NCBI GenBank assembly: GCA_900469625.1
Contig: UBXV01000028.1
Location: forward strand, 1 to 64,000
Direction of reading: 5' to 3'
DNA from: Hyphomicrobiales bacterium
GTDB taxonomy: Bacteria; Pseudomonadota; Alphaproteobacteria; Rhizobiales; Rhizobiaceae
Length of the DNA stretch: 64,000 nt
In this document: positions 12,419-41,117 of the stretch, piece by piece
Position numbering within the stretch: position 1 is the stretch's first letter
Layout of the letters: each line of letters starts with the position of its first letter
The notes under the pieces: generated by a model
Told to the model about the DNA's origin: nothing
What the model saw: only the letters and a program-made list of their open reading frames with translations
Databases searched by the model: none
Position numbers and translations under genes: made by a program

Positions 12419-12463
12419 TCTTCTAACGTGCCGCTATCGCCGGAGCCGCCAGGAGCCCGGCGC

Positions 12464-13120: not shown

Positions 13121-13147
13121 AAAAAACCCCGGATTGCTCCGGGGTTT
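13121..13147 (-). terminator. Rho-independent terminator of typA
   Basis: On the minus strand an ACCCCGG arm, a short AGCAAT-type loop and a CCGGGGT arm are followed by a run of T. It lies about 30 nt after the typA stop, the expected place and orientation. Confidence 0.85.
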
Positions 13148-13176
13148 CGAAATTTGCAGTTTATGGTCGGCTCGGC

Positions 13177-15003
13177 TTATGCAGCGCCGGCCGTGCGCGA
13201 CTTCTCGAAGCGCTTACGGTCGTTCGAGTCGAGATACATCTTGCGAAGACGGATCGACTTCGGCGTCACTTCGACGAGCTCGTCATCCTGGATCCAGGAC
13301 AGGGCGCGCTCCAGCGTCATGCGGATCGGCGGGGTCAGCTTGACGGCTTCGTCCTTGCCCGATGCGCGCATGTTGGTGAGCTTCTTGCCCTTCAACACGT
13401 TGACTTCGAGGTCGTTGTCGCGCGTGTGGATGCCGATGATCATGCCGGCATAGACCTTCTCGCCGGCTTCGATGATCATCGGGCCGCGGTCTTCCAGGTT
13501 GAACATGGCGTAGGCGACCGATTCGCCTGCGTCGTTGGAGAGCAGCACCCCGTTGACGCGGCCGCCGATCTCACCCTTGTACGGCTGGTAGGCGTGGAAC
13601 AGACGGTTCATGACCGCCGTGCCGCGCGTATCCGTCAGGAGTTCCGACTGGTAGCCGATCAGGCCGCGGGTCGGAGCGAAGAACACCAGACGGACGCGAT
13701 TGCCGCCGGACGGACGCAGCTCGACCATCTCGGCCTTGCGCTCGGACATCTTCTGAACGACGACGCCGGAATGCTCTTCATCGACGTCGATGACCACTTC
13801 TTCGATCGGCTCGAGCAACTGGCCATCGTCGTCCTTGTGCATGACCACACGCGGACGCGAAACGGCCAGTTCGAAGCCTTCGCGACGCATGGTTTCGATC
13901 AGAACCGCGAGCTGCAATTCGCCGCGACCGGACACGAAGAACGAATCCTTCTCGGAGGATTCCTCGATCTTCAGCGCAACGTTGCCTTCGGCTTCCTTGA
14001 ACAGACGGTCGCGGATGACGCGGCTCGTGACCTTGTCGCCTTCGGTGCCGGCAAGCGGGCTGTCGTTGACGATGAAGGACATGGTGACGGTCGGCGGGTC
14101 GATCGGCTGCGCGGTCAGAGCTTCGGTGACCGACGGGTCGCAGAACGTGTCGGCGACGGTGCCCTTGGTCAGGCCGGCGATGGCGACGATGTCACCCGCA
14201 TGCGCTTCGTCGATCGGCTGGCGCTCGATGCCGCGGAAGGCGAGGATCTTCGAGATACGGCCGGTTTCGAGCAGCTTGCCGTCCTGGCCGAGAACCCGGA
14301 CCGGCTGGTTCGGCTTCAGCGAACCGGAGTGGATGCGACCGGTGATGATGCGGCCGAGGAAGGGGTTTGCTTCCAGGATCGTGCCGATCATGCGGAACGG
14401 ACCTTCGGCAACCGTCGGCTCGGGAACGTGCTTGAGCACGAGGTCGAGAAGCGGCGCCATGCCCTGGTCCTTCGGACCCTCAGGCGCAACGTTCATCCAG
14501 CCATCGCGGCCTGAACCGTAGAGGATCGGGAAGTCGAGCTGCTCGTCGCTGGCATCGAGGTTTGCAAAGAGGTCGAAGACTTCGTTGATGACTTCTTCGT
14601 GGCGTCCGTCCGGACGGTCGATCTTGTTGATCGCGACGATCGGCTTCAGACCGACCTTCAGCGCCTTGCCGACGACGAACTTCGTCTGCGGCATCGGGCC
14701 TTCGGAGGCGTCGACGAGAACGATGGCGCCGTCCACCATCGACAGGATGCGCTCGACTTCACCGCCGAAGTCGGCGTGGCCGGGGGTGTCGACGATGTTG
14801 ATGCGCACGCCCTTCCACTCGACCGACGTCGCCTTGGCAAGAATGGTGATGCCGCGCTCTTTTTCGATGTCGTTGGAGTCCATCACGCGCTCGGCAACGC
14901 GCTGGTTTTCGCGGAACGAGCCCGACTGCTTCAGAAGCTCGTCGACAAGGGTCGTTTTCCCATGGTCGACGTGCGCGATAATCGCGATGTTACGAATGCT
15001 CAT
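13177..15003 (-). CDS. typA: Ribosome-associated GTPase TypA/BipA
   Basis: A translational GTPase of 608 residues that binds the 70S ribosome and aids assembly and stress adaptation, especially in the cold. The G motifs are visible: AHVDHGKTTL (P-loop), DTPGHADFGGE (G3) and NKIDRPD (G4), followed by EF-G-like domains III and V and the TypA-specific C-terminus. The ATG at 15003 gives the standard start MSIRNIAIIAHVDHG; the open frame upstream is not conserved. A terminator follows the stop. Confidence 0.97.
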   Translation of the reverse strand: MSIRNIAIIAHVDHGKTTLVDELLKQSGSFRENQRVAERVMDSNDIEKERGITILAKATSVEWKGVRINIVDTPGHADFGGEVERILSMVDGAIVLVDASEGPMPQTKFVVGKALKVGLKPIVAINKIDRPDGRHEEVINEVFDLFANLDASDEQLDFPILYGSGRDGWMNVAPEGPKDQGMAPLLDLVLKHVPEPTVAEGPFRMIGTILEANPFLGRIITGRIHSGSLKPNQPVRVLGQDGKLLETGRISKILAFRGIERQPIDEAHAGDIVAIAGLTKGTVADTFCDPSVTEALTAQPIDPPTVTMSFIVNDSPLAGTEGDKVTSRVIRDRLFKEAEGNVALKIEESSEKDSFFVSGRGELQLAVLIETMRREGFELAVSRPRVVMHKDDDGQLLEPIEEVVIDVDEEHSGVVVQKMSERKAEMVELRPSGGNRVRLVFFAPTRGLIGYQSELLTDTRGTAVMNRLFHAYQPYKGEIGGRVNGVLLSNDAGESVAYAMFNLEDRGPMIIEAGEKVYAGMIIGIHTRDNDLEVNVLKGKKLTNMRASGKDEAVKLTPPIRMTLERALSWIQDDELVEVTPKSIRLRKMYLDSNDRKRFEKSRTAGAA

Positions 15004-16768: not shown

Positions 16769-16999
16769 ACAAGCCTCCGGTTCGAACCTCGCGAAAGCGG
16801 GGTTTTCGCGAACCGGACCTTTGGCTGTTCTGATGTCAGCGACTTAACAGCCGCGTGAAAGAATTTGAACGGTTTGACGACAAATCGGTGAAGGCAAAGG
16901 TCGAGCACCGCTTTACGGTAAGCCGCCACGCCGCTGTCGTACGGTCGCATTTTCCGCAACCTGGCGCCTTGACGGCACGCCGACGGGAACACTAAGGGT

Positions 17000-17222
17000 A
17001 GCGGCGACGGTTCCCCCAAGGATGACTCCGACGGGGATTAATAGGGAACACGGTGAGGACGACCCAAAAGGGACCGAGACCGTGGCTGCCCCCGCAACTG
17101 TAAGCGGAATGCCGGACACCCCTCGTGGCGCGACAGCGCGCCATGCCACTGCGATCGCGCCAGGCGCGTTGCGGGAAGGCAGGTGAAAGGCGCCTGATCC
17201 GCGAGCCAGGAGACCTGCCGTC
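17000..17222 (+). promoter_or_regulatory. Cobalamin riboswitch (B12 element)
   Basis: The consensus parts appear in order: TTAATAGGGAACACGGTG, GACCGTGG paired with CACGGTG, the core CCCCGCAACTGTAAGC (about 17090-17105), GCCACTG (about 17145), GGGAAGGCAGG, and the B12-box end AGCCAGGAGACCTGCC (17204-17219). It lies upstream of a vitamin-B12/siderophore-type ABC importer. Adenosylcobalamin binding should reduce expression of the genes that follow. It is followed by a 190-nt leader containing a short open frame with a good ribosome site. Confidence 0.96.
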
Positions 17223-17273
17223 AAGCAGAAGATCCAGCGTCACGGGCGGGGTTGCCCGGAACAGGAGTTGTCC

Positions 17274-26066: not shown

Positions 26067-26250
26067 CGCATGTGCAGGGAAAGCGCCAAGCGGCTTTTCC
26101 AGAGGGAATGTGCGAAAAAGGAAGGTGGGGCGTGCGTCCGGCCGGATCGGAAACGCCCTTCCGCCTCGTCGCGGACAACAGCCCGCCGTCGCCTGAGATC
26201 ACTCAGGCGAGCCGGAAGAGATGTGGGCTAAGGCAGGATCGAAGTCCCGA

Positions 26251-26340
26251 TGGCGGAGAGGGTGGGATTTGAACCCACGATACCCTTGCAGGTATGCCGC
26301 ATTTCGAGTGCGGTGCATTCGACCACTCTGCCACCTCTCC
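26251..26340 (-). tRNA. tRNA-Ser(CGA), left copy
   Basis: A 90-nt class II tRNA with encoded CCA. The acceptor stem GGAGAGG pairs with CCTCTCC, the anticodon loop is CTCGAAA giving anticodon CGA (reads UCG), a long variable arm follows, and the T-loop is GTTCAAATC. It is identical to the copy at 40964-41053. Both copies keep the same upstream promoter, so both should be expressed. Confidence 0.96.
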
Positions 26341-26375
26341 GCATAGTCGGTCGGCGCTTGTTCGGCGCGGTCGGG

Positions 26376-26404
26376 TTCATAGCGGCAGATTCGGGTGCTG
26401 GCAA
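26376..26404 (-). promoter_or_regulatory. Promoter of the left tRNA-Ser copy
   Basis: On the minus strand TTGCCA (26399-26404), a 17-bp spacer and TATGAA (26376-26381) form a good sigma-70-type promoter 35 nt ahead of the tRNA. The flanking repeat ends exactly at the first base of the -35 hexamer. Confidence 0.75.
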
Positions 26405-26516
26405 TTTCGAATTCTGCGACGAGTGTGTGGCCGAGGCGTGCCGCCTCAACAGAAACGGACTGCAGTAACCCCCTCGGCCGCCCCCGACTCAAGGTCTTGC
26501 CGATACGCTCGCTCTA

Positions 26517-27656
26517 TCACTCGCTCTCCTCATCCTGGGCGCGCACCTGCCGTCCCAACCGAGCCAGCGGCTCATGAAGAGCATCCTCCAGCCGGCGTAG
26601 GTTGCGCGACAGCCAGTCTGCGATTGTTGGCCAGTTTTCGCGGTCGTAGCCGTCAAAATCCTGAGCGAAAACGATCAAGCTCTGTTTCTTGTCGTTCATC
26701 CGGCGCCAATCGAGCCGGGAACCGAAGGCGGCATCGATGGACGACTGTTCCGCAAGCAGCTGATCGAAAAGCCACTTGTTTTCCGCTCCCTCGGGCCGGG
26801 CTAACGACAGTTGAACACGCGCCTCGTCCTTCCCGAAGATCATCTGCCAAGGACAAGCACGCACGCCGGATCCCGCACTGAGCCAGTGATCCTTCGTTGG
26901 GCTGATGTTAGCGAAAAGGTTCACTCCGTCCTCACGTAGCTTCGCGAGCGCTTTCGCCCAGAACTGCTGCCGCAACTCGTGCCGACGCTTCTGTGTGCCC
27001 TGCACGGCGGTCTCTTCAACCTCCTTCGATGATATCCCGACCATGTAATCCGCGGCCTCCGGCGGAGGAATGATCTGCTGCAGATCGATGAAGAGCTCGT
27101 CCTCATAAGCAAAAGGCAACACTCGAAAGCACTGGGCACGAATACCGCGACTGAGCAACCACAGCACCGTTGCCGTGACCTCTCGGCGGAAGTTCGCCGC
27201 GATGAAAATCATGCGCTGCCCATTCCCCGGGTTTAGAACCGTCTCCTCCAGTTCCTCAACTTCCATAAATTCGCAGATCCGGGCGACAGCGCTACCGCCG
27301 CCGAAATAACGATCCAGGTAGTGTTGGTGGATCTCGACGATCTGGGCCTTGGTCAGTCCCGACACATAGGCAGTGTATTTTAGCGCCTGCCAGGTAACAT
27401 CTCGGCCCGAGTCGTCGAGCTTGTTCTCGATCACAACGAGATTTCCGGCCTTGTCGAGTGCCAGCAGGTCTAGCCGTTCGCGCGTCTCGTCGAAGCCGTC
27501 AAATTCCTTCTGAAGAATGAGTAGATCTTCGCCCAGGGCGTCCGGCTGGTGGACAAGCCATTCCTGTAAATGGTCACGTTCACGCAGGGCGAGTTCGCTG
27601 AAGCGCTTCTGGGTCAGGCGGGAGATACGGTTGCTGGGACGATCGACACGGAACAT
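26517..27656 (-). CDS. DUF4268 protein with PD-(D/E)xK nuclease-like N-terminal domain
   Basis: A 379-residue protein. The N-terminal half carries a NucS/PD-(D/E)xK-type core: Asp63 in RLDLLALD, then VVIENKL with Glu77 and Lys79, and Gln90 in WQALKY. The C-terminal half matches DUF4268 (FWAKALAKLRED, KDHWLSAGSGV, DWRRMNDKKQS). Such proteins occur often in defence islands and may act as stand-alone nucleases, but the reaction is not established. It is the leftmost island gene, transcribed toward the tRNA. Confidence 0.8.
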   Translation of the reverse strand: MFRVDRPSNRISRLTQKRFSELALRERDHLQEWLVHQPDALGEDLLILQKEFDGFDETRERLDLLALDKAGNLVVIENKLDDSGRDVTWQALKYTAYVSGLTKAQIVEIHQHYLDRYFGGGSAVARICEFMEVEELEETVLNPGNGQRMIFIAANFRREVTATVLWLLSRGIRAQCFRVLPFAYEDELFIDLQQIIPPPEAADYMVGISSKEVEETAVQGTQKRRHELRQQFWAKALAKLREDGVNLFANISPTKDHWLSAGSGVRACPWQMIFGKDEARVQLSLARPEGAENKWLFDQLLAEQSSIDAAFGSRLDWRRMNDKKQSLIVFAQDFDGYDRENWPTIADWLSRNLRRLEDALHEPLARLGRQVRAQDEESE

Positions 27657-27991
27657 CAGGCGACACTCGCTGGTGTCACGCCAAGTCTACCCAGTTCTTC
27701 AGAGCATAAATTGCTTACGTTCAGACCAATGGTGGATGCTTCTTGAGATTTGCCAACGCTCATACACTTGTCTCGCGGTTATTCAACTTCTCGATGCATC
27801 TCCATTAGCATGGTCTGGTGCCGTGACGTCAAACCCACGAGGCAAGGAACTACGCATACTCACAGGCGAAATTCGCTCGAAGGCCGATCCGATTTGGAAT
27901 GTCTTCTGAGTAGGCGCCCAAGCGTTTCTGCAGAGGCGCTCCAGAGCTATTCTCTATAGGGCGTTTTAGTCCCGACTGAATAAGTCATCAG
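27657..27991 (+). other. Island intergenic region with no gene seen
   Basis: About 335 bp between the start of the DUF4268 gene and the end of the HEPN/zinc-ribbon gene, both on the minus strand. It presumably holds the DUF4268 promoter. Open frames here are short, without ribosome sites, and look like chance. Composition is lower in GC than the neighbouring chromosome. Confidence 0.5.
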
Positions 27992-28957
27992 TTACTCCCG
28001 CATAAGCTTATCGAGTTGATGGCTGCAGTAGCCGCACAAGCCGTCATGCTCCGCATAGATAATCTCATTGATCGGGATCGATGTGCCGCAGCGATCGCAG
28101 TCAGGCTGACCATACTCATATCCGCAATTTGCACAGGCCCCCTCGAAGTCTACGTAGGAGTCGTTTCCGCATTCGGTGCAATGAAAGATTGGTCCGTCTT
28201 CTCCAGTCTCCTTTGCACGGATGTGACCTTCGGAGCTGAGAGCATCGCTCAGCGAGCCTACAATAGTTTTCTCAGTATCTGACTCAGCGCCACAGGCCCG
28301 GCAGACTAGCTCCATGTTTCGTTGCTCGGCGTTGGCCTGATCGCGTTGGCGAACCAGTTTCGAGTCACATGTTGGACAAATCAGACCGGCATCGGCAAGC
28401 GTTTCCGAAATCCAATCGACGTTCGAGAAGCTATCACGACAGCTCTTAAGCTCCTTCTCATACAATGTCTTGGCTTCGAGCATTAAGGGCCATGCGTCGC
28501 CCAGATGGTCTCCCGGAGCTTCATCGATATGCTCGAACAACTGCACAACGACAGGGAAAGCATTCGCGATTGCCTCGCGAACTGCCTCGCGGGGCTTCTG
28601 AGTAAAGAGATGCTCAACGTCGTTTCGAATCCGGTTGAGGTCGTCCAATGCCTTTTGATCGATCGCGAGCCCAAAGTCCTTGAACCGTCGCCCAATGGTA
28701 ACAAAATCAATTGTCGTCCCACCGTCCGCCACATACTCCACGCCTCCCTGGCCGTCTGGAACTGGCTTATACCTCGCCGCGATCAGGTCATCGATGTCGG
28801 CTTCGGGAACAGCCCTTACGAGCGTCTCCTTGGCCAGAAGGAGAACGCCTGCATAGAAATTTCGGACAGCAGATATCGCGCGCCTCGGATCATTGGATTG
28901 ATAATCCTCTACGCCCAATTGGATGGAAACAATCGCGTTCTCAAAGAGCTTGCTCAT
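27992..28957 (-). CDS. HEPN-like domain protein with three zinc ribbons
   Basis: A 321-residue protein not recognised as a named family. Residues 1-150 are helical and contain RNDVEH at 111-116, matching the R-x4-H motif of HEPN ribonuclease domains, after a helix AVRNFYAGVLLLAKETL that resembles HEPN helix 1. Residues 194-311 carry six CxxC pairs: 194/197 with 219/222, 260/263 with 275/278, and 287/290 with 308/311, that is three zinc ribbons. It is divergent from hsdM across 143 bp. An RNA-cutting or RNA-sensing role tied to the restriction system is inference; a structural HEPN is possible. Confidence 0.75.
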   Translation of the reverse strand: MSKLFENAIVSIQLGVEDYQSNDPRRAISAVRNFYAGVLLLAKETLVRAVPEADIDDLIAARYKPVPDGQGGVEYVADGGTTIDFVTIGRRFKDFGLAIDQKALDDLNRIRNDVEHLFTQKPREAVREAIANAFPVVVQLFEHIDEAPGDHLGDAWPLMLEAKTLYEKELKSCRDSFSNVDWISETLADAGLICPTCDSKLVRQRDQANAEQRNMELVCRACGAESDTEKTIVGSLSDALSSEGHIRAKETGEDGPIFHCTECGNDSYVDFEGACANCGYEYGQPDCDRCGTSIPINEIIYAEHDGLCGYCSHQLDKLMRE

Positions 28958-29100
28958 TCAATTTTTCCGCTAACGTATCTTCTGCAACAACTACACATTT
29001 CGAGAGTGTTTTATTCGCCTATCCCATATTGTCCAGATAAATTGCCTGCGCGCCCTGATCTGGTAGGATTGGCGGCAAATCATGACGGGGATTGCATAAC

Positions 29101-30580
<1,480 letters not shown>

Positions 30581-30591
<11 letters not shown>

Positions 30592-31813
30592 CGTGCCGAG
30601 CGGATGGCGACGCGTCGACCTGGGCGATGTTGCGAAAGAAGGTCGCTCCCGCAACTCGGATTTGCGAATCTCCGAGGACCGACTGGTTGGTGTGTTCAAA
30701 GATCAAGGCATGACTCCAATGCGAGAACGCGTTCGCGGCACTAGCTTCGAACGTTGCAAGGTGGTTCGCCCTGGCGATTTTGCTTACAACCCCATGAGAA
30801 TTAACATTGGGTCGATTGCGAGATCTACGGCTGATGCCGATCTGATGGTGAGCCCGGATTATGTTGTCTTCTCGCCAGACACAAATCAGATTGACGGCCT
30901 TTTCCTTGACTACCTCCGAAAATCAGATGCATGGGCCGCGTTTGTTGGCAACTCTGGCGATGGTGGCGTTCGCATTCGGATCTATTTTGAGCATTTGGCG
31001 CGCTTTCGATTCAATCTCCCTCCGCTCCACGAACAGCGGCGCATTGCCGAAATCCTATCGAGCGTCGACGAGGCCATTGCGGCAACGCGGGCGGTGATCG
31101 CGCAGACCAGAAAGGTGAAGCAGGGGATGCTGGAACGTCTGCTCACCAGAGGCATTGGCCACACGCGCTTCAAGCAAACGGAGATCGGGGCGATCCCGGA
31201 GGAGTGGGAGGTCCTACGAATTGGTGATTTTTGCCGAGTTCAAGGCGGTTATGCTTTTAAGTCATCAGAGTTTCAAGAAGATGGCGCTCCACTCGTTCGC
31301 ATATCAAATATCCGAGGAGGATCCGTGGACCTGGAAGGTGGTCCGCGCTTACCTCAAAAGTATCTTGCGGAATTTGCACAATTTGTTGTCGACCGAGGTG
31401 ATATCCTAATGGCTCTCTCTGGAGCAACTACTGGTAAATGGGGAGTAGCCGATCTTGAAGAGGCGGCACTTCTCAACCAGCGAGTTGGTCGGTTCGTTTT
31501 GACGAATTGCAGACGTGTCTCTTCAAAATTCCTTCCGGTTGTTGTCGAGAAAATAGCAGAATCTGTTCTGGAAAAGGCCTATGGCGGCGCACAACCTAAT
31601 ATTAGTCCCAACACCATTGAGAAAATAGTGGTCGCCGTGCCAGGACTTAGTGAACAAGAATTTATTGGTGACTATGTCAAACAATCTGACTTAGCGGCTC
31701 AGACAGATAAAAACCGCCTTGCGGCGCTGTTCGACCTGAAATCCGCCCTCACGTCCGACCTTCTCACCGGCCGAAAACGCGTCACCGACGCCTTGCCCAT
31801 GGCAGCGGAGTGA
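30581..31813 (+). CDS. hsdS: Type I restriction-modification system, specificity subunit
   Basis: A 410-residue DNA-recognition subunit with two target-recognition domains, each followed by a conserved helical spacer. The first ends in FNLPPLHEQRRIAEILSSVDEAI; the second begins IGAIPEEWEVLRIGDF and ends in LAALFDLKSALTSDLLTGR. The two domains should read the two halves of a bipartite site. The DNA of the recognition domains is AT-richer than hsdM, as usual for exchanged specificity modules. The start ATG at 30581 lies inside the hsdM 3' end. No second or partial hsdS is present. Confidence 0.93.
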
Positions 31814-31820
31814 GCGCCCT

Positions 31821-34800
31821 ATGAGCCACGGCCCCGAATGGCATTTCGCCGAGCGTCCGACGATCGAGCATCTGCAGGCCATGGGCTATGGCTTCGTGAC
31901 GCCAGCGGAGCATGCCACCTCACGCGAAAGCGAGAACCAAGTTCTGTTTCGCCTGCACCTCATCGACGCACTCATGCGCATCAACGGGATCGACCGCACT
32001 TCGGCCAAGGCCGCCTATGGCGAGCTGGCGGCGATCAGCGATAACGAGGCTTGGCTGAAGGTGCTGCGCGGCGACTATGCGCGCAAGGCTACCGGCCAGG
32101 ACACGCGGCAGACACTGCGCGTGATCGATTTCCTCAATCCGGCCAACAATCAGTTTTCCGTGACGCATCAATTGCGGGTGAAGGCGGAGAACACGCGCAA
32201 GCCGGATGTCGTGGTCTACTTGAACGGCATCCCGCTGGTGGTGATCGAGGCGAAAAGCCCGCTGAACGTGAAGGACAAGACCGGCGAGGCCTTCGAGCAA
32301 ATCAAGCAATATGAGCGAGACATACCGCGCCTGTTCTTCTCCAATGTCTTCAACATCGTCACCGACGGTGCGATGCTGCTCTATGGCGCGACCGGCTCCG
32401 GCTCCAAATACTTTGCCGAGTGGCGGGATCCCTGGCCGAAAGCGGAGGCCGATTTTCCCGACAGCCTCGCCAAAGGTCTGTGGTGCCTGCTGGAGCCGGG
32501 CCGGCTGCTCGACCTGATCGCGCACTACGTGGTGTTCGAAAAGACCGAAAGCGGCACGATCAAGAAGATCTGCCGCTACCAGCAGTTCCGCGCCGTCAAT
32601 CGCATCGTCGAGCGCGTGCTGGACGGCAAGCACCGGCAGGGGTTGATTTGGCATACACAGGGCAGCGGTAAATCGCTCACTATGGTGTTCGCGGCGCTGA
32701 AGCTGAAAACGCACCGGACCATTCAGTCCGAGGCTCTCACGAACCCGAACATTCTCGTGCTGACCGACCGCGTCGACCTGCACACCCAGATCAGCGGCAC
32801 ATTTGTCGCCTGCGGTCTGCAGAACCCGACACCGGTCGAGAGCATAAAGGACCTGCATGACCTGATCCGCAGCGGCAAGGACGGGCACACGGCGCTTTCG
32901 ACCATCTTCAAGTTCCAGGGTTCGAAGGAGCCGATCGAGAATTCCGAAAACTGGATCGTGATGGTGGACGAGGCCCATCGCACGCAGGAAAAGGATCTCG
33001 GCGCCTATCTGCGCGCCACGCTGCCGCACGCCCGCTTTTTCGGTTTCACCGGCACGCCGGTGAAGAAGGACGATAAGAACACCTACGAGAATTTCGGTGT
33101 GCCCGGCGAGGGCTATCTCGACAAATACGGCATCGACGATGCCGTGGCCGATGGCGCGACCGTGCCGATCTACTACACCGGCCGTAAGACCGACTGGCAC
33201 ATTGACGAGGCGAAGATCGACATCCTGTTCGACACCTGGTTTGCCGAGCTTGACGATGACAAGCTGAACGAGATCAAAAAGCGTGGGGTTCAGGTCGAGG
33301 ATCTGGTGAAGCATCCGCGCCGCATTGAGCTGATAGCTTACGACATCTGGACGCATTTCAAGCAATATGCCCGGCCGGATGGTTTCAAGGCGCAGATCGT
33401 TGCCATCGATCGCGAGGCAGTGATGCTCTACAAGCAGGCGCTGACCAACGTGATTGCAGAACATCTGCAGGCCGAGGGGCTAGAGGCAACCGAGGCGCTG
33501 GCACGCGCCGATGCCATGTCGGCCTGCGTTTATTCGATCAACCAGGAAGACAGCAAGCCGAGCGAGGATCCGCACAAGCAGGCGATCCGCACCGAGCTGA
33601 AAGCGCACTATCTGGATGCCGAAGCAGAAAAACTGGCGAAGAAGGCCTTTGGCCGCAAGGGCGACGACCCACAGTTCCTGATCGTTTGCGACAAGCTTCT
33701 GACCGGCTTCGACTGCCCGATCGAAAGCGTGATGTATCTCGACAAACCGCTGAAGGAGCATGGCCTGCTGCAGGCCATCGCCCGCACCAACCGCGTCTCC
33801 GATGCCAAGAAGCGCAACGGGCTGATCGTCGATTACATCGGTGTCTCGGGCCATCTGGAGGAAGCCCTCTCTTCCTACCGCACCGATGACGTGAAGAACG
33901 CCATGCGCGACCTGGACGATCTGCGCAATCAGTTGCGGGCGGCGCATTCTGCCGCGGCAGCCCTGATGAGGCCGCTGAAGCGCAAGGCGAGCAACAAGGA
34001 CGGGGTGAAGGCGGAGTATGATGCTTTCGTAAAGCTGCTGGGCAGCGAAGACAGGTGGTTCGACTTCAAGGCCAAGGCGCGCAGCTTCATCGCGCTTTAC
34101 GAGACGCTGAGCCCGGACCCGAGCGTTCTGGATTTCACCGTCGACCTGAAGTGGGTCGCAAACTTCCTGCTCTATGGCACGCAGCACTTCGAGAAGCGCC
34201 AGGCCTTCGACCAGATGACCTACAGCGAGAAGATCCGCGAGATGCTGGAGAAGCATCTGGAGGCGACGGGTCTGAGCGTCACGGTCAAGCTCCGCCATAT
34301 CACCGATCCGGACTTCTGGGAGGATTTCGATCCGGCCGACAAGACCGAGGAAGATCTGATGACGGCCGCGATTCGCAAGACGACGGAGCTCCGCAAGACC
34401 GTGACCGAGCGGATCGACGACAGCCCGCATCAATATGGCAAATTCTCGGAACGGCTACGCCAGCTTCTGGAAAAGCTGGAAACCGCGCAGCTCTCCTGGT
34501 CGGAGAAGCTGAAGGCGGCTGAGGAACTGGCAAAGGACATCACCGCCGAGGATGCCGCGCATGTCGAGGCGGGTCTCTCTCCCGGCGCCTACGGCATCCT
34601 GCAGATCCTCAACGGCTTTACCTCGGGGCCGGAGGGAGAAGATCTAGCAATCCGGCTGGAAGGCCTCTACAGCGATCCCGTGACCGCACCTGCTGGGTGG
34701 TGGGAAAAGGACGGCCTGCGCAAGAGCCTTCGCCAGCAGGTGCGTTCCATGGCACATCTGGCTGGCCTGACGCAGCTCAAGGAGATCCCGGAAGTGGTCG

Positions 34801-34835
34801 AAGCCTACGCGCTCAAGCATTTTGCGGGTGAATAA
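31821..34835 (+). CDS. hsdR: Type I restriction-modification system, restriction/translocase subunit
   Basis: A 1004-residue motor-nuclease. The N-terminal PD-(D/E)xK site is Asp129 with Glu143 and Lys145 in VVIEAKSP. The helicase has Walker A TQGSGKSLT (about 279-287), the DEAH-type box VDEAHRTQ, FTGTP, and late motifs LLTGFDCP and QAIARTNR. A long helical C-terminal domain binds the methylase. It cuts DNA lacking the host mark at a distance after translocation. It starts 7 nt after hsdS and appears intact. Confidence 0.96.
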   Translation: MSHGPEWHFAERPTIEHLQAMGYGFVTPAEHATSRESENQVLFRLHLIDALMRINGIDRTSAKAAYGELAAISDNEAWLKVLRGDYARKATGQDTRQTLRVIDFLNPANNQFSVTHQLRVKAENTRKPDVVVYLNGIPLVVIEAKSPLNVKDKTGEAFEQIKQYERDIPRLFFSNVFNIVTDGAMLLYGATGSGSKYFAEWRDPWPKAEADFPDSLAKGLWCLLEPGRLLDLIAHYVVFEKTESGTIKKICRYQQFRAVNRIVERVLDGKHRQGLIWHTQGSGKSLTMVFAALKLKTHRTIQSEALTNPNILVLTDRVDLHTQISGTFVACGLQNPTPVESIKDLHDLIRSGKDGHTALSTIFKFQGSKEPIENSENWIVMVDEAHRTQEKDLGAYLRATLPHARFFGFTGTPVKKDDKNTYENFGVPGEGYLDKYGIDDAVADGATVPIYYTGRKTDWHIDEAKIDILFDTWFAELDDDKLNEIKKRGVQVEDLVKHPRRIELIAYDIWTHFKQYARPDGFKAQIVAIDREAVMLYKQALTNVIAEHLQAEGLEATEALARADAMSACVYSINQEDSKPSEDPHKQAIRTELKAHYLDAEAEKLAKKAFGRKGDDPQFLIVCDKLLTGFDCPIESVMYLDKPLKEHGLLQAIARTNRVSDAKKRNGLIVDYIGVSGHLEEALSSYRTDDVKNAMRDLDDLRNQLRAAHSAAAALMRPLKRKASNKDGVKAEYDAFVKLLGSEDRWFDFKAKARSFIALYETLSPDPSVLDFTVDLKWVANFLLYGTQHFEKRQAFDQMTYSEKIREMLEKHLEATGLSVTVKLRHITDPDFWEDFDPADKTEEDLMTAAIRKTTELRKTVTERIDDSPHQYGKFSERLRQLLEKLETAQLSWSEKLKAAEELAKDITAEDAAHVEAGLSPGAYGILQILNGFTSGPEGEDLAIRLEGLYSDPVTAPAGWWEKDGLRKSLRQQVRSMAHLAGLTQLKEIPEVVEAYALKHFAGE

Positions 34836-35580
34836 GGTGGCCCTCTATCGCATCGGTGAGCGGGAGATCGAATACACGCTGCGTCGATCGCCCAAGGCGC
34901 GCAAGGCAAGCCTGAGCGTCACACCGCAGTCCTTCGAGCTGCTGGTGCCGGAAGGCGCGACCGACGTGCAGATCAACGCCGTTCTCGATCGCCGTCGCGC
35001 CTGGATCATCGAGACCGTGCAGCACATGGCCGAACGCGCCAAGGCCCAGACACGCGTCTACCAGTTCGTTACCGGTGCCAAGATCCCTTATCGCGGCCGC
35101 ATGACCAGGCTTACCATCGAGCCCTTCGACGGACGCCTGGTCGAGGTGAGCTTCCGTAACGGCTTCCAGATCCGCAAACCCTTCGACCTTTCCATAGAAT
35201 CGTCCGACGCCATCGTCGAAAGTGCGCTTCGGCTCTGGCTGAAGCGTCGCGTGCGAGACGATGCCCGCGTATTCATTCGCCGACATGGCGAACGCCATGG
35301 GTTGAAGCCGCGCGGCGTGCAAATCAAAGACCAGAAGCACATGTGGGGCAGCTGCGGCCAGGACCGACAGATCAACCTCAATTGGCACCTGATCTTCGCG
35401 CCGAAGCCCGTGCTTGAATACGCTGTTGTTCATGAGATGTGCCACCTGAAGCACCGGAACCACGAGACGGAGTTCTGGGACCTCGTTGGGCGGGTATTGC
35501 CGGACTGGGAAATGAGGAGGGCTTGGCTCGACAAGAATGAACACATGCTGGGCTGGGAGAAGGTGGAGGCGGTGGTCTAG
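34828..35580 (+). CDS. YgjP-like (DUF45) zinc metallohydrolase
   Basis: A 250-residue protein of the YgjP/COG1451 group (M48-like). The zinc site is HEMCHLKHRNHETEFW, with HExxH and a third His, and GSCGQDRQINLNWHLIF upstream is typical of the family. It is often encoded right after type I hsdR genes, though its role there is unknown. The GTG at 34828 lies within the last codons of hsdR; a GTG at 34837 is an alternative start. Coupling to hsdR is therefore close. Confidence 0.85.
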   Translation: MNKVALYRIGEREIEYTLRRSPKARKASLSVTPQSFELLVPEGATDVQINAVLDRRRAWIIETVQHMAERAKAQTRVYQFVTGAKIPYRGRMTRLTIEPFDGRLVEVSFRNGFQIRKPFDLSIESSDAIVESALRLWLKRRVRDDARVFIRRHGERHGLKPRGVQIKDQKHMWGSCGQDRQINLNWHLIFAPKPVLEYAVVHEMCHLKHRNHETEFWDLVGRVLPDWEMRRAWLDKNEHMLGWEKVEAVV

Positions 35581-35701
35581 CGAGCAGTATGCATTCTTTG
35601 ACTCGAGGATGGTCACTGGCCGGCTCGGTGGTCGCAAGCATTGCTTCGCAGCTCACGACATGCAAAACGCCCAGGTGAGTCTCCCAGTCGATTTCGACAT
35701 G

Positions 35702-36268
35702 CTACTCAATCCGGACGCCCCGTAGAATACGAGCCAGTGTTTTTGGATGGACCTGATACCTCGAGGCCACCTCAGAGATGGGCTCCAGATCGATATTGAC
35801 CGCCCGCTTAGCAGCATCGGTCTGCACTTTTGTCATCGACGGTCGACGTCCTATGCGAGATCCTCGCGCTCTCGCTGCTTCCATCCCCGCCTTGGTGCGC
35901 TCGCTGATGATGGCTCTTTCAAATTCTGCCATCGCCGCCATCATGTGGAATACCAGCCGTCCGCCCGACGACGACGTATCGATGCTCTCCGTCAGCGATC
36001 GGAAGTCACAGCCCCGCTTCGACAGCCCGTTCACGGTTTGAATAAGGTCGACAAGGGATCGCCCAAGTCGGTCAAGCCGCCAAACGACCAGCATATCACC
36101 CCTCTTGATTTGCCTTAGAGCACTGCGAAGGCCAGGACGCTGGAAGTCGGCACCGGATAATCCGTGATCGGTGAAGATCTCCGAGCAACCTGCCACCTTC
36201 AGCGCGCCAGTCTGCATATCGAGGTTCTGCTCAACCGTTGAAACACGGGCATAACCGACCAGCTTCAT
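35702..36268 (-). CDS. Serine recombinase, resolvase/invertase family
   Basis: A 188-residue small serine recombinase. The catalytic Ser10 lies in GYARVSTVEQ, with FTDHGLSGAD and VVWRLDRLGRS (the Arg-rich active-site region), EFERAIISERTKAG (long helix) and a C-terminal helix-turn-helix RYQVHPKTLARIL. It may be a transposon resolvase or DNA invertase; no partner transposase is seen. The ATG at 36268 gives the normal family N-terminus; the open frame upstream to 36394 is extra. Confidence 0.92.
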   Translation of the reverse strand: MKLVGYARVSTVEQNLDMQTGALKVAGCSEIFTDHGLSGADFQRPGLRSALRQIKRGDMLVVWRLDRLGRSLVDLIQTVNGLSKRGCDFRSLTESIDTSSSGGRLVFHMMAAMAEFERAIISERTKAGMEAARARGSRIGRRPSMTKVQTDAAKRAVNIDLEPISEVASRYQVHPKTLARILRGVRIE

Positions 36269-36417
36269 CTCCAATACCCTCACGCTCTGTATCGTTTCTA
36301 AGCCATTGACATAAAGGAACCTTTTCGCTCTGTCGGTGTTAAAATCGAGCCAGACCGGAAGCCCTTGAAACCTTAGGACCGGTCGGTCTGGCATTTAACT
36401 GCATCGTCTATCGGACA

Positions 36418-36783
36418 ATGGTTCCCTTTCGCTCTCGTTGGCCAGAACACAAAAGGCGGACTTTGAGCTTTTTGGCGATTCTCATCGCATCTGGGGCCGT
36501 GTTTGGAGGAGGCAGTGCGATCATCGCGTCCAATAAGAACCGTGACCCGTTGGGCTGGTTTTTGCTGGGTTTTTTGTTCAGCATCGTCGCACTTATCGTT
36601 GTCGCCGCGTTGTCCCCGGTAACAGGTCCCCAGGCAGCACGAGCTAAGCAGGTAGGCCGCGGCAAACGATTGCGCTCATCGTCTAATGTGCGAAAGGCTG
36701 ACCAGACAGATGATGACAGTTGGAAACAGCCTGGCGAGTTTGTCGCCAAGCCACAAGATCCTGAAAGGCCGTGGCTTGGTTGA
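36418..36783 (+). CDS. Small membrane protein, hypothetical
   Basis: A 121-residue protein with two hydrophobic segments (about residues 17-35, LSFLAILIASGAVFG, and 44-65, GWFLLGFLFSIVALIVV), joined by SNKNRDPLG, a layout common in small uncharacterised membrane proteins. The C-terminal half is charged and polar. It is divergent from the serine recombinase. The ribosome site is weak, so the start is not certain. Confidence 0.5.
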   Translation: MVPFRSRWPEHKRRTLSFLAILIASGAVFGGGSAIIASNKNRDPLGWFLLGFLFSIVALIVVAALSPVTGPQAARAKQVGRGKRLRSSSNVRKADQTDDDSWKQPGEFVAKPQDPERPWLG

Positions 36784-37021
36784 CTTCGCCAGGCATTGTT
36801 GGTTCGACTCCAGAAGCTTGCAATCTTTTCGGTGTCCGGCGTGGGAGGGAGATCAACCAAGACATGCTGGGCCGTCCCTTGAGCGACGTGTCGGGATACT
36901 GAGATCGAGCATCAAGGAAACTCTGCTGGGTGACTCCCAGGCGCTCACTGACCGGCGTCGACAATTCCGATGAGGAAATGATCGTCGGAAGCTCAGCGCG
37001 CGCCTGTGAGCGTCTATGAGC

Positions 37022-37351
37022 TTACTGCGCCGCCGCTGATACGTTCCGGTTTGAAGCTGCGATTTGAGAGTGGCTTTTCTTAAGCAGCACGTTGAGGAAG
37101 AGACTGGCGACGTCTGCGTAGGTATGCCTGGCGATCGGCCTACCCAAACGAGCTTGGATCCGAAGGCGTCGCAAATTCTCCCTAAACCCAAATGGAAAGG
37201 GCTCCAGATCGCCTATAAGTAGGTCGCTACATTCGAGAAGTGTGAGAGGCGACCCGTCGAGTTGGCTGCCATCTGCCTCATAGCCTTCTTCCAGGTAAAC
37301 CTCTAAGCGGTTCCGAAAGAGCCGGCGAATGTCCGTGATGTCGATATCCAT
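37022..37351 (-). CDS. Hypothetical protein, 109 residues
   Basis: A soluble protein starting MDIDITDIRRLFRNRLEVYLEEGYEADGS without a family match that I know. The ATG at 37351 has TTAGGAG 7 nt upstream, good evidence that the frame is real. It lies downstream of the larger gene at 37488-38492 on the same strand; between them is a 19-bp inverted repeat with an AT-rich centre, which may separate or regulate the two. Confidence 0.55.
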   Translation of the reverse strand: MDIDITDIRRLFRNRLEVYLEEGYEADGSQLDGSPLTLLECSDLLIGDLEPFPFGFRENLRRLRIQARLGRPIARHTYADVASLFLNVLLKKSHSQIAASNRNVSAAAQ

Positions 37352-37400
37352 TTGAACTCCTAACGTCGGGAAGAAAGATGACTATCCGGAGAGTAATTCG

Positions 37401-37467
37401 GATGTAACGGTCGGCCTATTTTCTTTCTTCTTTTAAAGAAATATAAATATAGGGCGACCGTTACATC
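37401..37467. repeat. 19-bp inverted repeat with AT-rich spacer
   Basis: Arms 37401-37419 and 37449-37467 are reverse complements at 18 of 19 positions (GATGTAACGGTCG core), around a 29-bp spacer of very low GC. Outside the arms a second pair, ATCCGGAGA, also faces inward (about 37384-37392 and 37475-37483). It lies between two minus-strand island genes. It could be a terminator, an operator or a recombination/replication site. Confidence 0.8.
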
Positions 37468-37487
37468 ATCTTGTCTCCGGATCATCT

Positions 37488-38492
37488 CTAGGCCGAAGGT
37501 TGAGGATGAAGGAGAGCGGCAGCCTTAAGCGCGCGATGGCGTCGCGTTCGACGACGTTGACCCTCCTTCCGGGTTTCATCTCTCCGGTCCTTCAGCGGAG
37601 ACAAGCTGCCGTTCCGGCGGACCATCGTTTTAACAACGACCTCGCAGGTCTTTGAGCACAGTGAGGCAAAAGGGCATCCGTGGCACTCGACAACCGGTGC
37701 CGCCGGAACACCGAAGCATCCCGGCACGAAGCTGATAAGTGGCAACCGCTCTTCCGGCTCGATCATCACACGCCCGTGAGCCAGTTCAGATCTGAGACTT
37801 GAGATAACGTTCTTGCGCATTGGCTTCGACACCGCCCTCATCGCCGACGTCAGCGGAAGATATCGACGCTCCAGGCAGTAAGTCTGCACCATCATGTCCC
37901 AAGGCCTGGTCGCGCTTCTGAGCTCGCCGAACAGGTAGTCGCGGAGATCGTCTTGTGACGTCAGCCCCCGGTAGTTTTCGACTCGGTATTGAGGCAGATC
38001 GGACAATTCCCGTAGACATGCCTCGAAGGGTCCGTCGAGAAAATGTTCGAGCTTACCAAACCAAGCCTCGCGAGAGTTCCCAGTGCCGAACACTTGGCCT
38101 GGCCTAGGCGGTTTTCGCCACCTTCGACGAGACGCAAAGTCGAGGCCAAATTCGATAAGGAGATGGTAGGGGATGCCCATCTCGTCGGCATCTAAGCGAG
38201 CATTCCAGACCTCGGTCAGAACGCGATCTGGGGCATCGAAGAGATCGAGCCTAAGACCACGCACTTGGTTTGCCCTGTCGACGTCCTGAAAGGTTCGAAC
38301 ATGTCTCTTCAGGACTTCGCGATAGACGTCTGCGAAATGCATCGTTGCGGCCAAGGGAGACATAAAACGATATCCATACCATTTGGTCTCGGCGACAGCT
38401 TTCTCACGTGCAAGGACCGCCGGCATGACCAGCTCGCACGACCTGACCACGTCCTGGACGCGAGCATTCACGGTTCGATGAAATTTAGACAT
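37488..38492 (-). CDS. Hypothetical protein with Cys cluster, 334 residues
   Basis: I do not recognise this protein. It is basic and mainly helical, with KWYGYRFMSPLAATMHFADVY near the start, GIPYHLLIEFGLDFASRRRW in the middle, and the cluster CHGCPFASLCSKTC near residue 270 (C-x2-C-x5-C-x3-C), which could bind zinc or an iron-sulfur centre. The C-terminal 40 residues are strongly basic, suggesting nucleic-acid binding. The stop lies 20 nt beyond the large inverted repeat. The frame and codon use look coding, but function is unknown. Confidence 0.6.
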   Translation of the reverse strand: MSKFHRTVNARVQDVVRSCELVMPAVLAREKAVAETKWYGYRFMSPLAATMHFADVYREVLKRHVRTFQDVDRANQVRGLRLDLFDAPDRVLTEVWNARLDADEMGIPYHLLIEFGLDFASRRRWRKPPRPGQVFGTGNSREAWFGKLEHFLDGPFEACLRELSDLPQYRVENYRGLTSQDDLRDYLFGELRSATRPWDMMVQTYCLERRYLPLTSAMRAVSKPMRKNVISSLRSELAHGRVMIEPEERLPLISFVPGCFGVPAAPVVECHGCPFASLCSKTCEVVVKTMVRRNGSLSPLKDRRDETRKEGQRRRTRRHRALKAAALLHPQPSA

Positions 38493-39074
38493 AGCTACTC
38501 CGTCGCGCCCGAAAGCACGTTGAAAAAAATGGATGGTGAGAGGCCAGTGTTCTGGCTTGATCGAGGTCGCTATAGCGAGATCGAAAAGGCTTACCCGAAA
38601 AATCTTGAACTTACTTCGGCCTGGTGGCGATGAGAGATTTTTTCAGCGGGCAAGCAACGGTCCGGCAGCGTTTTCACTGGCGCGCGAATAGTTCTGCGCC
38701 TCTCCAATACTGATATTGCCGGCGTCCAGCAGGAAAAACGCAGAAAATAGGCTGTTCGTCTCAACTTATGGGAAAGTTAGCGACAATGATCTTCTTATTT
38801 TCGATAAGAGGAAAGCCGTCCGAGTTGCACATCCTCATTCTCACTCGGACTCAAATGTAAGCGCCAAGCGGCGCCAAAAGTTGGCAGAATGTAAACGTGA
38901 ACGAGCGGGAGGAGCGGTGGCTACGTCCCCACTTTACTGCGGCGCCAGAATGCATCCCCTTTGAACAGATCGATTTTTCCTAGGACTTCGCTCGCCTTTG
39001 TGCCCTAGCGAAAATGACCCGTCATCGCCCATGCGATCCTGTGGGACGACGACGATCATCGGCTATGGACTGGT
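38493..39074 (+). other. Island intergenic region, about 580 bp
   Basis: Lies between the start of the Cys-cluster gene and the end of the integrase gene. An 82-codon plus-strand frame at 38716-38964 has no ribosome site and no recognisable protein; I do not call it. The stretch near 38750-38850 is AT-richer than its flanks. No tRNA, IS end or CRISPR-like repeat is seen. Confidence 0.5.
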
Positions 39075-40067
39075 TTATCCGAGACGCGCAACGAGATCGT
39101 CAGCGCTGAGGTGCGTATAGCGCTTCAACATCCGGAGCTCCTTGTGACCCGAAATACTGCTGACCTCGATGATGTTCAGACCACGTTCGAACAGCCGGCT
39201 AACGCCCTCATGTCGTAGATCATGAAAGCGCAGCACCTTGACGTTCGATCGCGTCAGCAAACGACGCCAGGCTTGTTCAAGCGCTCCGGCTTTCATAGGG
39301 AATACGGCGGACTGACTTACATCTGCGCTATCCTTCCACTCGCTCAACGCCTTGAACGCACGCTGCGACAGAGGCACCTCGCGACCGGAGCCGTTTTTGG
39401 TCATCGTCAGTGTGATTACTCGACGATTGTGGGAGATGTCGTTCCACTTGAGCCCCAGAATTTCCCCTCGGCGCATCCCGGTCTCGATGGCGAGAATGAC
39501 GATCGTCTTGAGGAAAGGGATCTGACCCGCATCGCAGCCGTCGAGCAGAAGCTGCTCTTCGTCACCGGACAGGCGTCGGCTGCGCTCATTCCGGATCACC
39601 GGACGTCGCACCATTTTCACCACATTACGAGCCAGAGGCAGACCCCAATCGCGGATCGCGACTTCAATGACGTGACTGAGGATCGCAAGCTCTCGGACAG
39701 TCGTCGATGGAGCTACCGACTTGAGCCGTTCATCTCGGAACGAGGAGATATCCTGAGGTGAGAGACCCACCATCGTCCGATAGGCAATGTCGTGCCGCTT
39801 CAGCACGTCGATACGCTGGATCTCCTGGACTGATCCGCGCTTGGTCGGCGACACTTCTGTTTTGTAGCGCTCCAGGAGCTCCCTGAGCGTTGTTGACTCG
39901 AGGATACGAGTATCTGGTGCTGCGCCGAACCGATCGACCTGAGCCTCAAGCTCGCGCGCCCACTTATCGGCTTCGAGCTTGCTGTCGAATGATTTGCAGC
40001 GGGGTTTCATACCGCGCCGGCGAACCTGGGCCTGCCAGCGTCCTCGGAGTTTTCGGATCGTCGCCAT
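39075..40067 (-). CDS. int: Tyrosine recombinase/integrase of the island
   Basis: A 330-residue site-specific recombinase. An N-terminal AP2-like arm-binding region (RKLRGRWQAQVRRRG) and a SAM-like core-binding domain precede the catalytic domain. The catalytic residues are Arg199 in TGMRRGEIL, Lys224 in TKNGSGR, His282 and Arg285 in FHDLRHEG, His308 in SGHKEL and Tyr317 in KRYTHL, so it looks active. It sits about 0.9 kb from the 3' end of the right tRNA-Ser copy, as expected for the enzyme that inserted this island. Confidence 0.93.
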   Translation of the reverse strand: MATIRKLRGRWQAQVRRRGMKPRCKSFDSKLEADKWARELEAQVDRFGAAPDTRILESTTLRELLERYKTEVSPTKRGSVQEIQRIDVLKRHDIAYRTMVGLSPQDISSFRDERLKSVAPSTTVRELAILSHVIEVAIRDWGLPLARNVVKMVRRPVIRNERSRRLSGDEEQLLLDGCDAGQIPFLKTIVILAIETGMRRGEILGLKWNDISHNRRVITLTMTKNGSGREVPLSQRAFKALSEWKDSADVSQSAVFPMKAGALEQAWRRLLTRSNVKVLRFHDLRHEGVSRLFERGLNIIEVSSISGHKELRMLKRYTHLSADDLVARLG

Positions 40068-40215
40068 GTGATCTCCAACTGGAGTTGAAGATCACGCGTA
40101 GGATGCCCCTGGAGAGGTGCCAAGGATAATTCCATTGCAGCGAAAATCTAACGAAACCTCGAAGCATTCTTTAGGGAGTATCTGATACCTCCACGAAAAA
40201 GAGGAATCGATTGTA

Positions 40216-40788
40216 ATGGCATATATAAGATCCACCACATTCCCTAAAAAAGATGACCCACCCACTTTTATAAAAGAAATAATAAAGGCATTCGAAAGAA
40301 CGACTGATCTCGACTATAAGGCAGAAAACCCTAAGGAGTATACTAGTGACGCAATACTTAAAAAGATCGGGAAAAGCCTATCAGATTTAGGTTTTGACGT
40401 TGAGAAACGCGGAGATTCCTCTAAAAGAATAAAGAAGTCAATCTCAACAGGAAACGACGCTCAAATACAATACTTTATAGATGCTTACCACCCTGTATGG
40501 CGATGCGGCCTAGAGGTTGAAGCAGGTCGAGGATGGAAAAGCAACGCTGTATACCGAAATATTGTTCAATCGATACTTACGCTAGACGTTGATCATTTAG
40601 TTATCGCGGTTAGAAATGAGTATCGCTCGAAAAAAGAAATCAGCAAGGATTATGACAAGCTCGCTAGACTTTGCGACGCGTTATATTCAAACAACCGCAT
40701 AGAGATGCCGGTCACCATGTGTGTGATTGGATACGGAATGCCCGCCGTGCGCGATAATCCGAAGAATCCCGGAGGGTTTGAGCGATGA
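40216..40788 (+). CDS. AT-rich hypothetical protein, possible PD-(D/E)xK nuclease
   Basis: A 190-residue protein whose DNA is strikingly AT-rich next to its neighbours and uses AT-ending codons, a sign of recent transfer. Residues 85-135 read as strand-Asp89-strand-Glu100-x-Glu102 (GLEVEAGRGWKSNAVYRN), then a helix and the strand HLVIAVRN, resembling the core of type II restriction-like nucleases. This is pattern-based and not secure. It lies between the integrase and the right repeat, a typical cargo spot. Confidence 0.6.
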   Translation: MAYIRSTTFPKKDDPPTFIKEIIKAFERTTDLDYKAENPKEYTSDAILKKIGKSLSDLGFDVEKRGDSSKRIKKSISTGNDAQIQYFIDAYHPVWRCGLEVEAGRGWKSNAVYRNIVQSILTLDVDHLVIAVRNEYRSKKEISKDYDKLARLCDALYSNNRIEMPVTMCVIGYGMPAVRDNPKNPGGFER

Positions 40789-40963
40789 CACGTAAGGCGC
40801 ATCACTTGGGCATGCGCAGTTGCGCGCTTATCGGCTGACGCAGATGACACGGTAAGTCGCAAAGGCGTGCCGAGAGTGTGGCCCTAGCCAATTTCGGTAT
40901 CGGCATGCTAGCTTGAGAAAAATCAACGGACAGTGAGGAGACCTTACGATCTAAGGGAGCCAA

Positions 40964-41053
40964 TGGCGGAGAGGGTGGGATTTGAACCCACGATACCCTT
41001 GCAGGTATGCCGCATTTCGAGTGCGGTGCATTCGACCACTCTGCCACCTCTCC
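40964..41053 (-). tRNA. tRNA-Ser(CGA), right copy
   Basis: Same 90-nt sequence as the left copy: acceptor GGAGAGG/CCTCTCC, anticodon CGA, long variable arm, encoded CCA. The integrase lies beyond its 3' end, so this copy probably corresponds to the original insertion target side. Confidence 0.96.
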
Positions 41054-41088
41054 GCATAGTCGGTCGGCGCTTGTTCGGCGCGGTCGGG

Positions 41089-41117
41089 TTCATAGCGGCA
41101 GATTCGGGTGCTGGCAA
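41089..41117 (-). promoter_or_regulatory. Promoter of the right tRNA-Ser copy
   Basis: Minus-strand TTGCCA (41112-41117), 17-bp spacer, TATGAA (41089-41094), identical to the left copy. Upstream DNA beyond the -35 differs between the copies, so upstream activation, if any, would differ. Confidence 0.75.

What the first reader, a model, noticed from the sequence alone, without database searches (positions are those of the whole stretch)
26250..41117. Genomic island flanked by a perfect 155-bp direct repeat at tRNA-Ser(CGA)
Seen: 26250-26404 and 40963-41117 are identical, with immediate divergence outside. Between them lie a tyrosine integrase with all catalytic residues, a type I restriction system and several unknown genes. 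Known: tRNA-targeting integrases normally duplicate only the 3' end of the tRNA (about 15-60 bp). Here the whole tRNA and 64 bp upstream are duplicated. Inference: the incoming element carried a full tRNA cassette, or a later conversion copied it.
Basis: partly seen in the sequence, partly recalled or inferred. Interest (0 to 1): 0.75.

Follow-up and report, generated by a model that had tools for sequence, protein, structure and literature searches.

The report
Defence island carrying a whole tRNA gene
A mobile DNA island in a bacterium from the family of the root-nodule bacteria is bordered on both sides by a complete tRNA gene with its control region, apparently because islands of this kind carry a whole tRNA gene as their docking site instead of the usual fragment.

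Summary
Confirmed: 26250-26404 and 40963-41117 are a perfect 155-bp direct repeat, running from a -35-like box through CCA of tRNA-Ser(CGA). Three congeners have one unit cleanly joining both flanks; 15 of 15 congeners have a single match at E<=1e-20. It is not a one-off: of 37 integrase-bearing genomes, 19 have two full-length copies on one contig, 2 a truncated second copy, 16 neither. The integrase lies between the copies in 21 of 21, and points the tRNA's way in 20. Two natural hybrids, one chromosomal and one on plasmid pRL10, place the crossover in the anticodon arm. Paired motifs on the element sides (16 of 21, 19 of 21; host sides 3 and 1 of 21) look like integrase arm sites. So attP appears to be a whole promoter-bearing tRNA gene between two arms. 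The element-derived promoter matches its own host best in 14 of 22, suggesting re-capture. Sampled relatives carry restriction-modification genes in 10 of 11. Islander rejects full-length hits (PMC4383910). A new variant of a known kind; expression, excision and arm binding untested.

The parts
26250..26404 (-). Distal (D) copy of the 155-bp unit: by analogy element-derived promoter and tRNA 5' half, host-derived 3' half
   Evidence: Perfect repeat; assignment from hybrid junctions in relatives
40963..41117 (-). Proximal (P) copy of the 155-bp unit, rplU side: by analogy host promoter and 5' half, element-derived 3' half
   Evidence: Perfect repeat; upstream flank contiguous in relatives
26251..26340 (-). 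tRNA-Ser(CGA), D copy
   Evidence: ARAGORN and Rfam RF00005
40964..41053 (-). tRNA-Ser(CGA), P copy
   Evidence: ARAGORN and Rfam RF00005
26376..26404 (-). Inferred promoter of D copy: TTGCCA-N17-TATGAA
   Evidence: Read from sequence; similar in relatives; the strict sigma-70 scan did not call it
41089..41117 (-). Inferred promoter of P copy, same sequence
   Evidence: As above; not called by the strict scan
26296..26314 (-). Inferred crossover zone (anticodon arm), D copy
   Evidence: Bounded by hybrids G443 and pRL10; not measurable here, copies identical
41009..41027 (-). Inferred crossover zone (anticodon arm), P copy
   Evidence: As above
26426..26442 (-). Candidate integrase arm site GGCAC-N5-GGCCACA
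   Evidence: Only match with <=1 mismatch in the window; 16 of 21 one-contig pairs, window included, <=2 mismatches
40867..40883 (-). Candidate integrase arm site GGCCACA-N5-GGCAC
   Evidence: Only match with <=1 mismatch in the window; 19 of 21
39075..40067 (-). Tyrosine integrase, 330 aa
   Evidence: Pfam PF00589 9e-31; residues by eye; relatives
37488..38492 (-). Recurrent protein of unknown function, C-terminal Cys cluster
   Evidence: Homologues in 15 of 97 fetched loci; phrog_2500 1e-23; alignment
35702..36394 (-). Serine recombinase/invertase-like protein, recurrent in relatives
   Evidence: Pfam Resolvase 5e-46; homologues in 31 of 97 fetched loci
29092..30591 (+). HsdM, type I R-M
30575..31813 (+). 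HsdS, type I R-M
31821..34835 (+). HsdR, type I R-M
34813..35637 (-). Unknown ORF beside hsdR
   Evidence: Six loci; no family hit
26517..27656 (-). DUF4268 protein, PADLOC candidate PDC-S11
   Evidence: 7e-168
27992..28957 (-). PADLOC candidate PDC-S64
   Evidence: 6e-44
26405..40962 (.). Island body between the repeats, 14,558 bp

Best explanation
This is an integrated genomic island with a restriction-modification system, whose attachment site (attP) is a complete, promoter-bearing tRNA-Ser(CGA) gene lying between two integrase arm sites. The tyrosine integrase recombines the anticodon arm of the attP gene with that of the host gene. One end then holds host promoter + host 5' half + element 3' half; the other holds element promoter + element 5' half + host 3' half, so both ends are whole tRNA genes. 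Later the element's copy is re-matched to the resident host gene by homologous exchange (conversion, or excision by crossover elsewhere in the repeat), which would explain a perfect 155-bp repeat of the host genus's own type. Shown: repeat, empty site, recurrence with the integrase, hybrid junctions, motifs. Inferred: arm function, route of homogenisation, expression of both copies.
For: Empty site: G004, G015 and G014 have one unit next to both flanks; G011 and G003 too, but with about 130 bp of other sequence before the left flank. An in-silico empty site aligns to L034 as one block of 957 columns, 91.7%, 7 gaps. Recurrence: 19 of 37 integrase-bearing genomes have two full-length tRNA-Ser(CGA) on one contig, 2 more a truncated second copy (37 of the 38 loci were used, L115 left out). 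The integrase lies between the copies in 21 of 21, in the tRNA's direction in 20. Copies are identical for at least the first 91 nt in 15 of the 19. G036, with a 67% integrase, has identical tRNA and promoter at both ends. Crossover: G443 has a foreign promoter on D and a foreign variable arm on P, so exchange lies between position -2 and 47; on pRL10 the 5' halves differ up to position 28 and P has the type of two empty plasmids. Motifs: 16 of 21 D-side, 19 of 21 P-side, spacer 5 in all hits; host sides 3 and 1 of 21; held-out P copies 5 of 5 plus G036 and G319. Host matching: own host first in 14 of 22; G444's element promoter equals the host promoter of G443.
Against: In the window the copies are identical, so crossover and origin of each half rest on relatives. 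Whole-gene duplication is not universal: of the other 16 genomes, 5 have further full copies only on other contigs, 8 have one full copy (G427, G431 and the complete chromosome of G446 among them) and 3 none; G134 and G266 (72% and 69% integrases) show one copy beside the integrase. Some D copies decay: one-base deletions in G428 and G442, a damaged gene in G319, so function of D is not always kept. Eight of 22 genomes do not match their own host best, and close-range transfer could explain the matches. D-side motifs fail in 5 of 21 and in 2 of 3 held-out D copies. The motif was noticed in these same sequences. The pRL10 hybrid is clean on the 5' side only. Promoter scans were negative.
Confidence: 0.78

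Rival explanations
1. Conventional element with only a 3' tRNA fragment in attP; the distal fragment was later extended to a whole gene by conversion from the intact copy.
For: Copies are identical here; a distant phage integrase (39.8% identity) uses a 64-bp 3' fragment (PMC7326022, section 19); some carriers show one full copy only.
Against: D copies in G443, G436, G428, G434 and pRL10 are whole or nearly whole genes whose upstream promoter region is not the host's, so the element brought it.
Confidence: 0.1
2. One-off imprecise excision: a single ancestral circle picked up host DNA and this strain received it.
For: The repeat ends sharply and matches the native unit of six congeners at 98-100%; nine others at 90-92%.
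Against: The same architecture recurs in 19 other genomes of many genera, with the same motifs.
Confidence: 0.07
3. The second tRNA is cargo kept for codon supply of island genes, and its place at the att end is incidental.
For: A Sinorhizobium study reports extra tRNA genes inside phage-related sequences and suggests codon adaptation (PMC11476347, section 2.3).
Against: In the 20 pairs with tRNA and integrase in one direction the copy sits at the end, in the target's orientation, and is the target's own isoacceptor.
Confidence: 0.05

Closest known systems
tRNA-targeting tyrosine-integrase islands as defined by Islander (PMC4383910; passages seen)
   Same: Tyrosine integrase, tRNA target restored at integration, anticodon-centred crossover class
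   Different: [quoted passage not shown] here both ends are whole genes with promoters
Pseudomonas phages YA3 and Ab31 (PMC7326022; passages and section 19 seen; L163)
   Same: Integrase 39.8% identical over the query, tRNA-Ser target; ARAGORN calls a tRNA-Ser(CGA)-like stretch beside the Ab31 integrase
   Different: att identity is the last 63 bp of the tRNA plus 1 bp, a conventional 3' fragment; the 5' part of the Ab31 stretch looks degenerate (by eye)
Phage-related sequences with extra tRNA genes in Sinorhizobium meliloti (PMC11476347; passages and section 2.3 seen)
   Same: Integrated elements in a related genus that bring complete tRNA genes
   Different: Other tRNAs and elements; the authors saw no evidence that such genes become new integration sites
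Phage HP1 of Haemophilus and Streptomyces SLP1 (both recalled, no paper seen)
   Same: Long att identity over tRNA genes, as recalled
   Different: Promoter content and host matching not compared

Membership tests
Integrative genomic island with tyrosine integrase at a tRNA gene | Integrase gene inside the element with catalytic residues | tested here: met
Integrative genomic island with tyrosine integrase at a tRNA gene | Related genomes with an empty target site | tested here: met
Integrative genomic island with tyrosine integrase at a tRNA gene | Excision and circular form | not testable with these tools
   Needs PCR or reads
Islander-type signature | Whole tRNA gene at one end, tRNA fragment at the other | tested here: not met
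   Both ends whole
Islander-type signature | Crossover at anticodon, T-loop or T-acceptor junction | tested here: inconclusive
   Anticodon arm in relatives; copies identical in the window
ICE or IME | Relaxase or type IV secretion genes | tested here: not met
   None among 10 main island ORFs; smaller ORFs and an oriT not tested
Prophage or phage satellite | Structural or packaging genes | tested here: not met
   None in Pfam for 10 main ORFs nor in PHROGs for 10 ORFs, R-M genes left out

The most novel reading that the evidence does not exclude
The element uses a living tRNA gene as its attP: a promoter-bearing tRNA-Ser(CGA) unit that is re-captured from each host, so that integration regenerates a complete, expressed target at both ends. 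The ends can then serve as new docking sites (arrays), and the attP promoter records the previous host, as G444's element with the promoter of a G443-like host suggests.
Probability: 0.36. Interest if true: 0.68.

Novelty: new variant of a known kind. Interest (0 to 1): 0.52.

Why it matters
The Islander definition of tRNA islands assumes a whole gene plus a fragment, and its pipeline discards hits in full-length tRNA genes, so islands like this may be missed systematically. If both copies are expressed, the element never puts the tRNA at risk, can build arrays and leaves a readable trace of host history in its attP. It also marks tRNA-Ser(CGA) as a docking site for restriction-modification islands in this bacterial family.

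Tried and rejected
Structure prediction of 37488-38492 gave mean pLDDT 57 and pTM 0.38, so no fold search was made; PDB and Pfam profile searches gave only weak hits. The strict promoter and terminator scan showed no tRNA promoter or terminator. Viral contigs gave one relative, L169, with no tRNA in the 10.5 kb held. The integrase tree is weakly resolved (6 of 29 inner branches starred) and does not prove transfers. Thirteen genomes whose best integrase is 40-56% identical (fragments included) have no tRNA-Ser(CGA) match near it; the trait was seen from 64% identity upward. G448 has its integrase against the tRNA's direction, so I no longer use it for the crossover. Rows dropped: searches used 22 of the 26 groups (G448, G429, G430, G426 out); in G432 and G433 the copies lie on different contigs and were labelled by elimination. 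The name Mesorhizobium for the host genus, used in my notes, is my guess; no call names the window. That this is not in print rests on ten text searches only; Williams 2002 was not held.

Full report
The blocks 26250-26404 and 40963-41117 are identical over 155 bp and diverge at once on both sides. Each holds a tRNA-Ser(CGA) on the minus strand. Read in tRNA orientation the block starts with TTGCCA-N17-TATGAA and ends one base past CCA. A strict sigma-70 scan did not call this promoter; it is inferred from position and from similar sequences upstream of the tRNA in relatives.

Between the repeats lie 14,558 bp at 56.5% G+C against 64.6% and 63.5% in the flanks. They hold a tyrosine integrase, a serine recombinase, a recurrent protein of unknown function, a type I R-M system and two PADLOC candidates. 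No relaxase or phage structural gene was seen among ten main ORFs.

Empty sites exist. G004, G015 and G014 carry one unit with both flanks directly beside it; G011 and G003 carry one unit with about 130 bp of other sequence before the left flank. An in-silico empty site of this window aligns to L034 as one block of 957 columns at 91.7%. All 15 other congeners held have one match at E<=1e-20 and none has this integrase at E<=1e-60. G014 and G013 also hold tRNA-Ser-like relics on other contigs (81 and 61 query positions); ARAGORN calls no tRNA there and no homologue of 17 window island ORFs lies in the 15 and 10 kb fetched. In G013 the main tRNA is followed by a P-type motif and integrase-like fragments without a second copy.

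The duplication goes with the integrase. Of 394 family genomes 38 matched at E<=1e-70; a scan of genome contigs gave 38 loci, 28 of which hold a tRNA-Ser(CGA) in the fetched DNA. Thirty-seven of those 38 genomes were searched for the tRNA: 19 have two full-length copies on one contig, 2 (G458, G448) a truncated second copy, 5 further full copies on other contigs, 8 one full copy and 3 none. The integrase lies between the copies in 21 of 21; it points the tRNA's way in 20, G448 being the exception. Spacing is 11.9-24.9 kb in 19 of 21, with 5.9 and 58.7 kb besides. Copies agree for at least the first 91 nt in 15 of the 19. Single-copy carriers on long contigs, such as G427, G431, G446, G134 and G266, show that the second copy can be lost or decayed. 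Among the 37 family genomes, the two with two near-full-length copies at 85% or more in the listing (G000, G036) are both carriers; the listing was cut at its weak end. G036, with a 67% integrase, has identical tRNA and promoter at both ends.

Crossover. In G443 the distal copy has a promoter unlike the host's and a native-type variable arm, while the proximal copy has the host promoter and a foreign variable arm, so exchange lies between positions -2 and 47 as numbered (two higher than in the gene). 'Native' rests on the relative G444. On plasmid pRL10 of Rhizobium ruizarguesonis a relative of the element has two copies 10 kb apart; two related plasmids have the empty site. The proximal 5' half has the plasmid-type bases, up to position 28, with a few mismatches, and the distal 5' half and promoter do not. 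The distal 3' half of pRL10 is not that of the two empty plasmids, so this hybrid is clean on one side only. Together the exchange lies within 29-47, the anticodon arm. In phage YA3 the att identity is the last 63 bp of the tRNA-Ser plus 1 bp (PMC7326022, section 19), which would also start near the anticodon stem.

Motifs. On the element side of each copy stands a pair of half-sites: GGCAC-N5-GGCCACA upstream of D in 16 of 21 one-contig pairs (window included), GGCCACA-N5-GGCAC downstream of P in 19 of 21, with two mismatches allowed and a 5-nt spacer in every hit; host sides show 3 and 1 of 21. An earlier count with two label faults gave 18 and 22 of 25, host sides 6 and 4, simple shuffles 4.8% and 1.8%. 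The motif was noticed in these sequences, so held-out copies matter: 5 of 5 further P copies have it, as do the P copies of G036 and G319, while of three further D copies (G426, G036, G319) only G319's does. In the window each occurs once at <=1 mismatch. In the 16 of 22 genomes with both at <=3 mismatches their centres lie 127+-10 and 148+-6 bp from the anticodon. I take them as integrase arm sites, by inference.

Why a perfect repeat here? D-P homology upstream of the tRNA reaches at least 40 nt in 20 of 22, median 57. The element-derived promoter is closest to the resident host copy in 14 of 22, although the window's integrase is 80-88% identical to those of many genera. The window's distal promoter is 100% identical to its own host copy and at most 75% to those of the other 21. 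G444's element promoter is identical over 60 nt to the host promoter of G443. The simplest account is capture of host sequence by conversion or homologous excision and carriage to the next host; long residence within the host genus cannot be excluded.

Arrays. The copy L149 of Shinella WSJ-2 has motifs on both sides and this genome has two such integrases (G113), as if a regenerated copy had taken in a second element; the contigs are not joined, so this is a lead.

Cargo. Twenty large ORFs from 11 relative islands were scanned with PADLOC: restriction-modification models matched in 10 of 11, L138 being the exception; L137 has homologues of the window's type I genes. Of 97 fetched loci, some overlapping, 54 match the integrase, 31 the serine recombinase and 15 the 37488-38492 protein.

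Known context. [quoted passage not shown] A Sinorhizobium study describes extra tRNA genes in integrated phage-related sequences but no use as new sites (PMC11476347, section 2.3). Ten text searches found no paper on this family. I rate it a new variant of a known kind.

Noticed in passing
window 16991-17236 (+): Cobalamin riboswitch, 99.7 bits, outside the island.
   Followed up: no
window 37401-37467: Inverted repeat with 33-nt arms, 82% complementary, 1 nt apart.
   Followed up: no
L037 (G013), 9846-13721: A congener has a remnant at the same tRNA with two integrase-like fragments and a P-type motif but no second tRNA copy.
   Followed up: partly
L172 7277-7356 (G014) and L173 4924-4973 (G013): Degenerate tRNA-Ser(CGA)-like relics that keep the anticodon arm, on other contigs of two congeners.
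   Followed up: partly
L165 and L166 (plasmids CP049732.1, NZ_CP090092.1): Plasmid empty sites hold a divergent tRNA-Ser(CGA)-like sequence followed by a stretch like that downstream of the island P copies; perhaps a relic of an earlier visit.
   Followed up: partly
L164 7797-7832 and 14604-14691 (Shinella oryzae plasmid): Element remnant with a whole tRNA at one end and only a tRNA 3' part at the other, a motif at each.
   Followed up: partly
L167 (Rhizobium sp. NLR16a plasmid p3): A plasmid carries rplU, rpmA, obgE, proB and a tRNA-Ser-like unit, as if a chromosomal block had moved.
   Followed up: no
L163 5801-5887 (Pseudomonas phage Ab31): ARAGORN calls a tRNA-Ser(CGA) beside the integrase, although the YA3 paper's table lists no tRNA for Ab31; the 5' part looks degenerate.
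   Followed up: partly
L147 and L148 (G448): Pair identical from 68 nt upstream to position 42, then diverging in the anticodon arm; the integrase between them points the other way.
   Followed up: partly
window 34813-35637 (-): Unknown ORF overlapping the end of hsdR; relatives beside the same hsdR in other islands.
   Followed up: no
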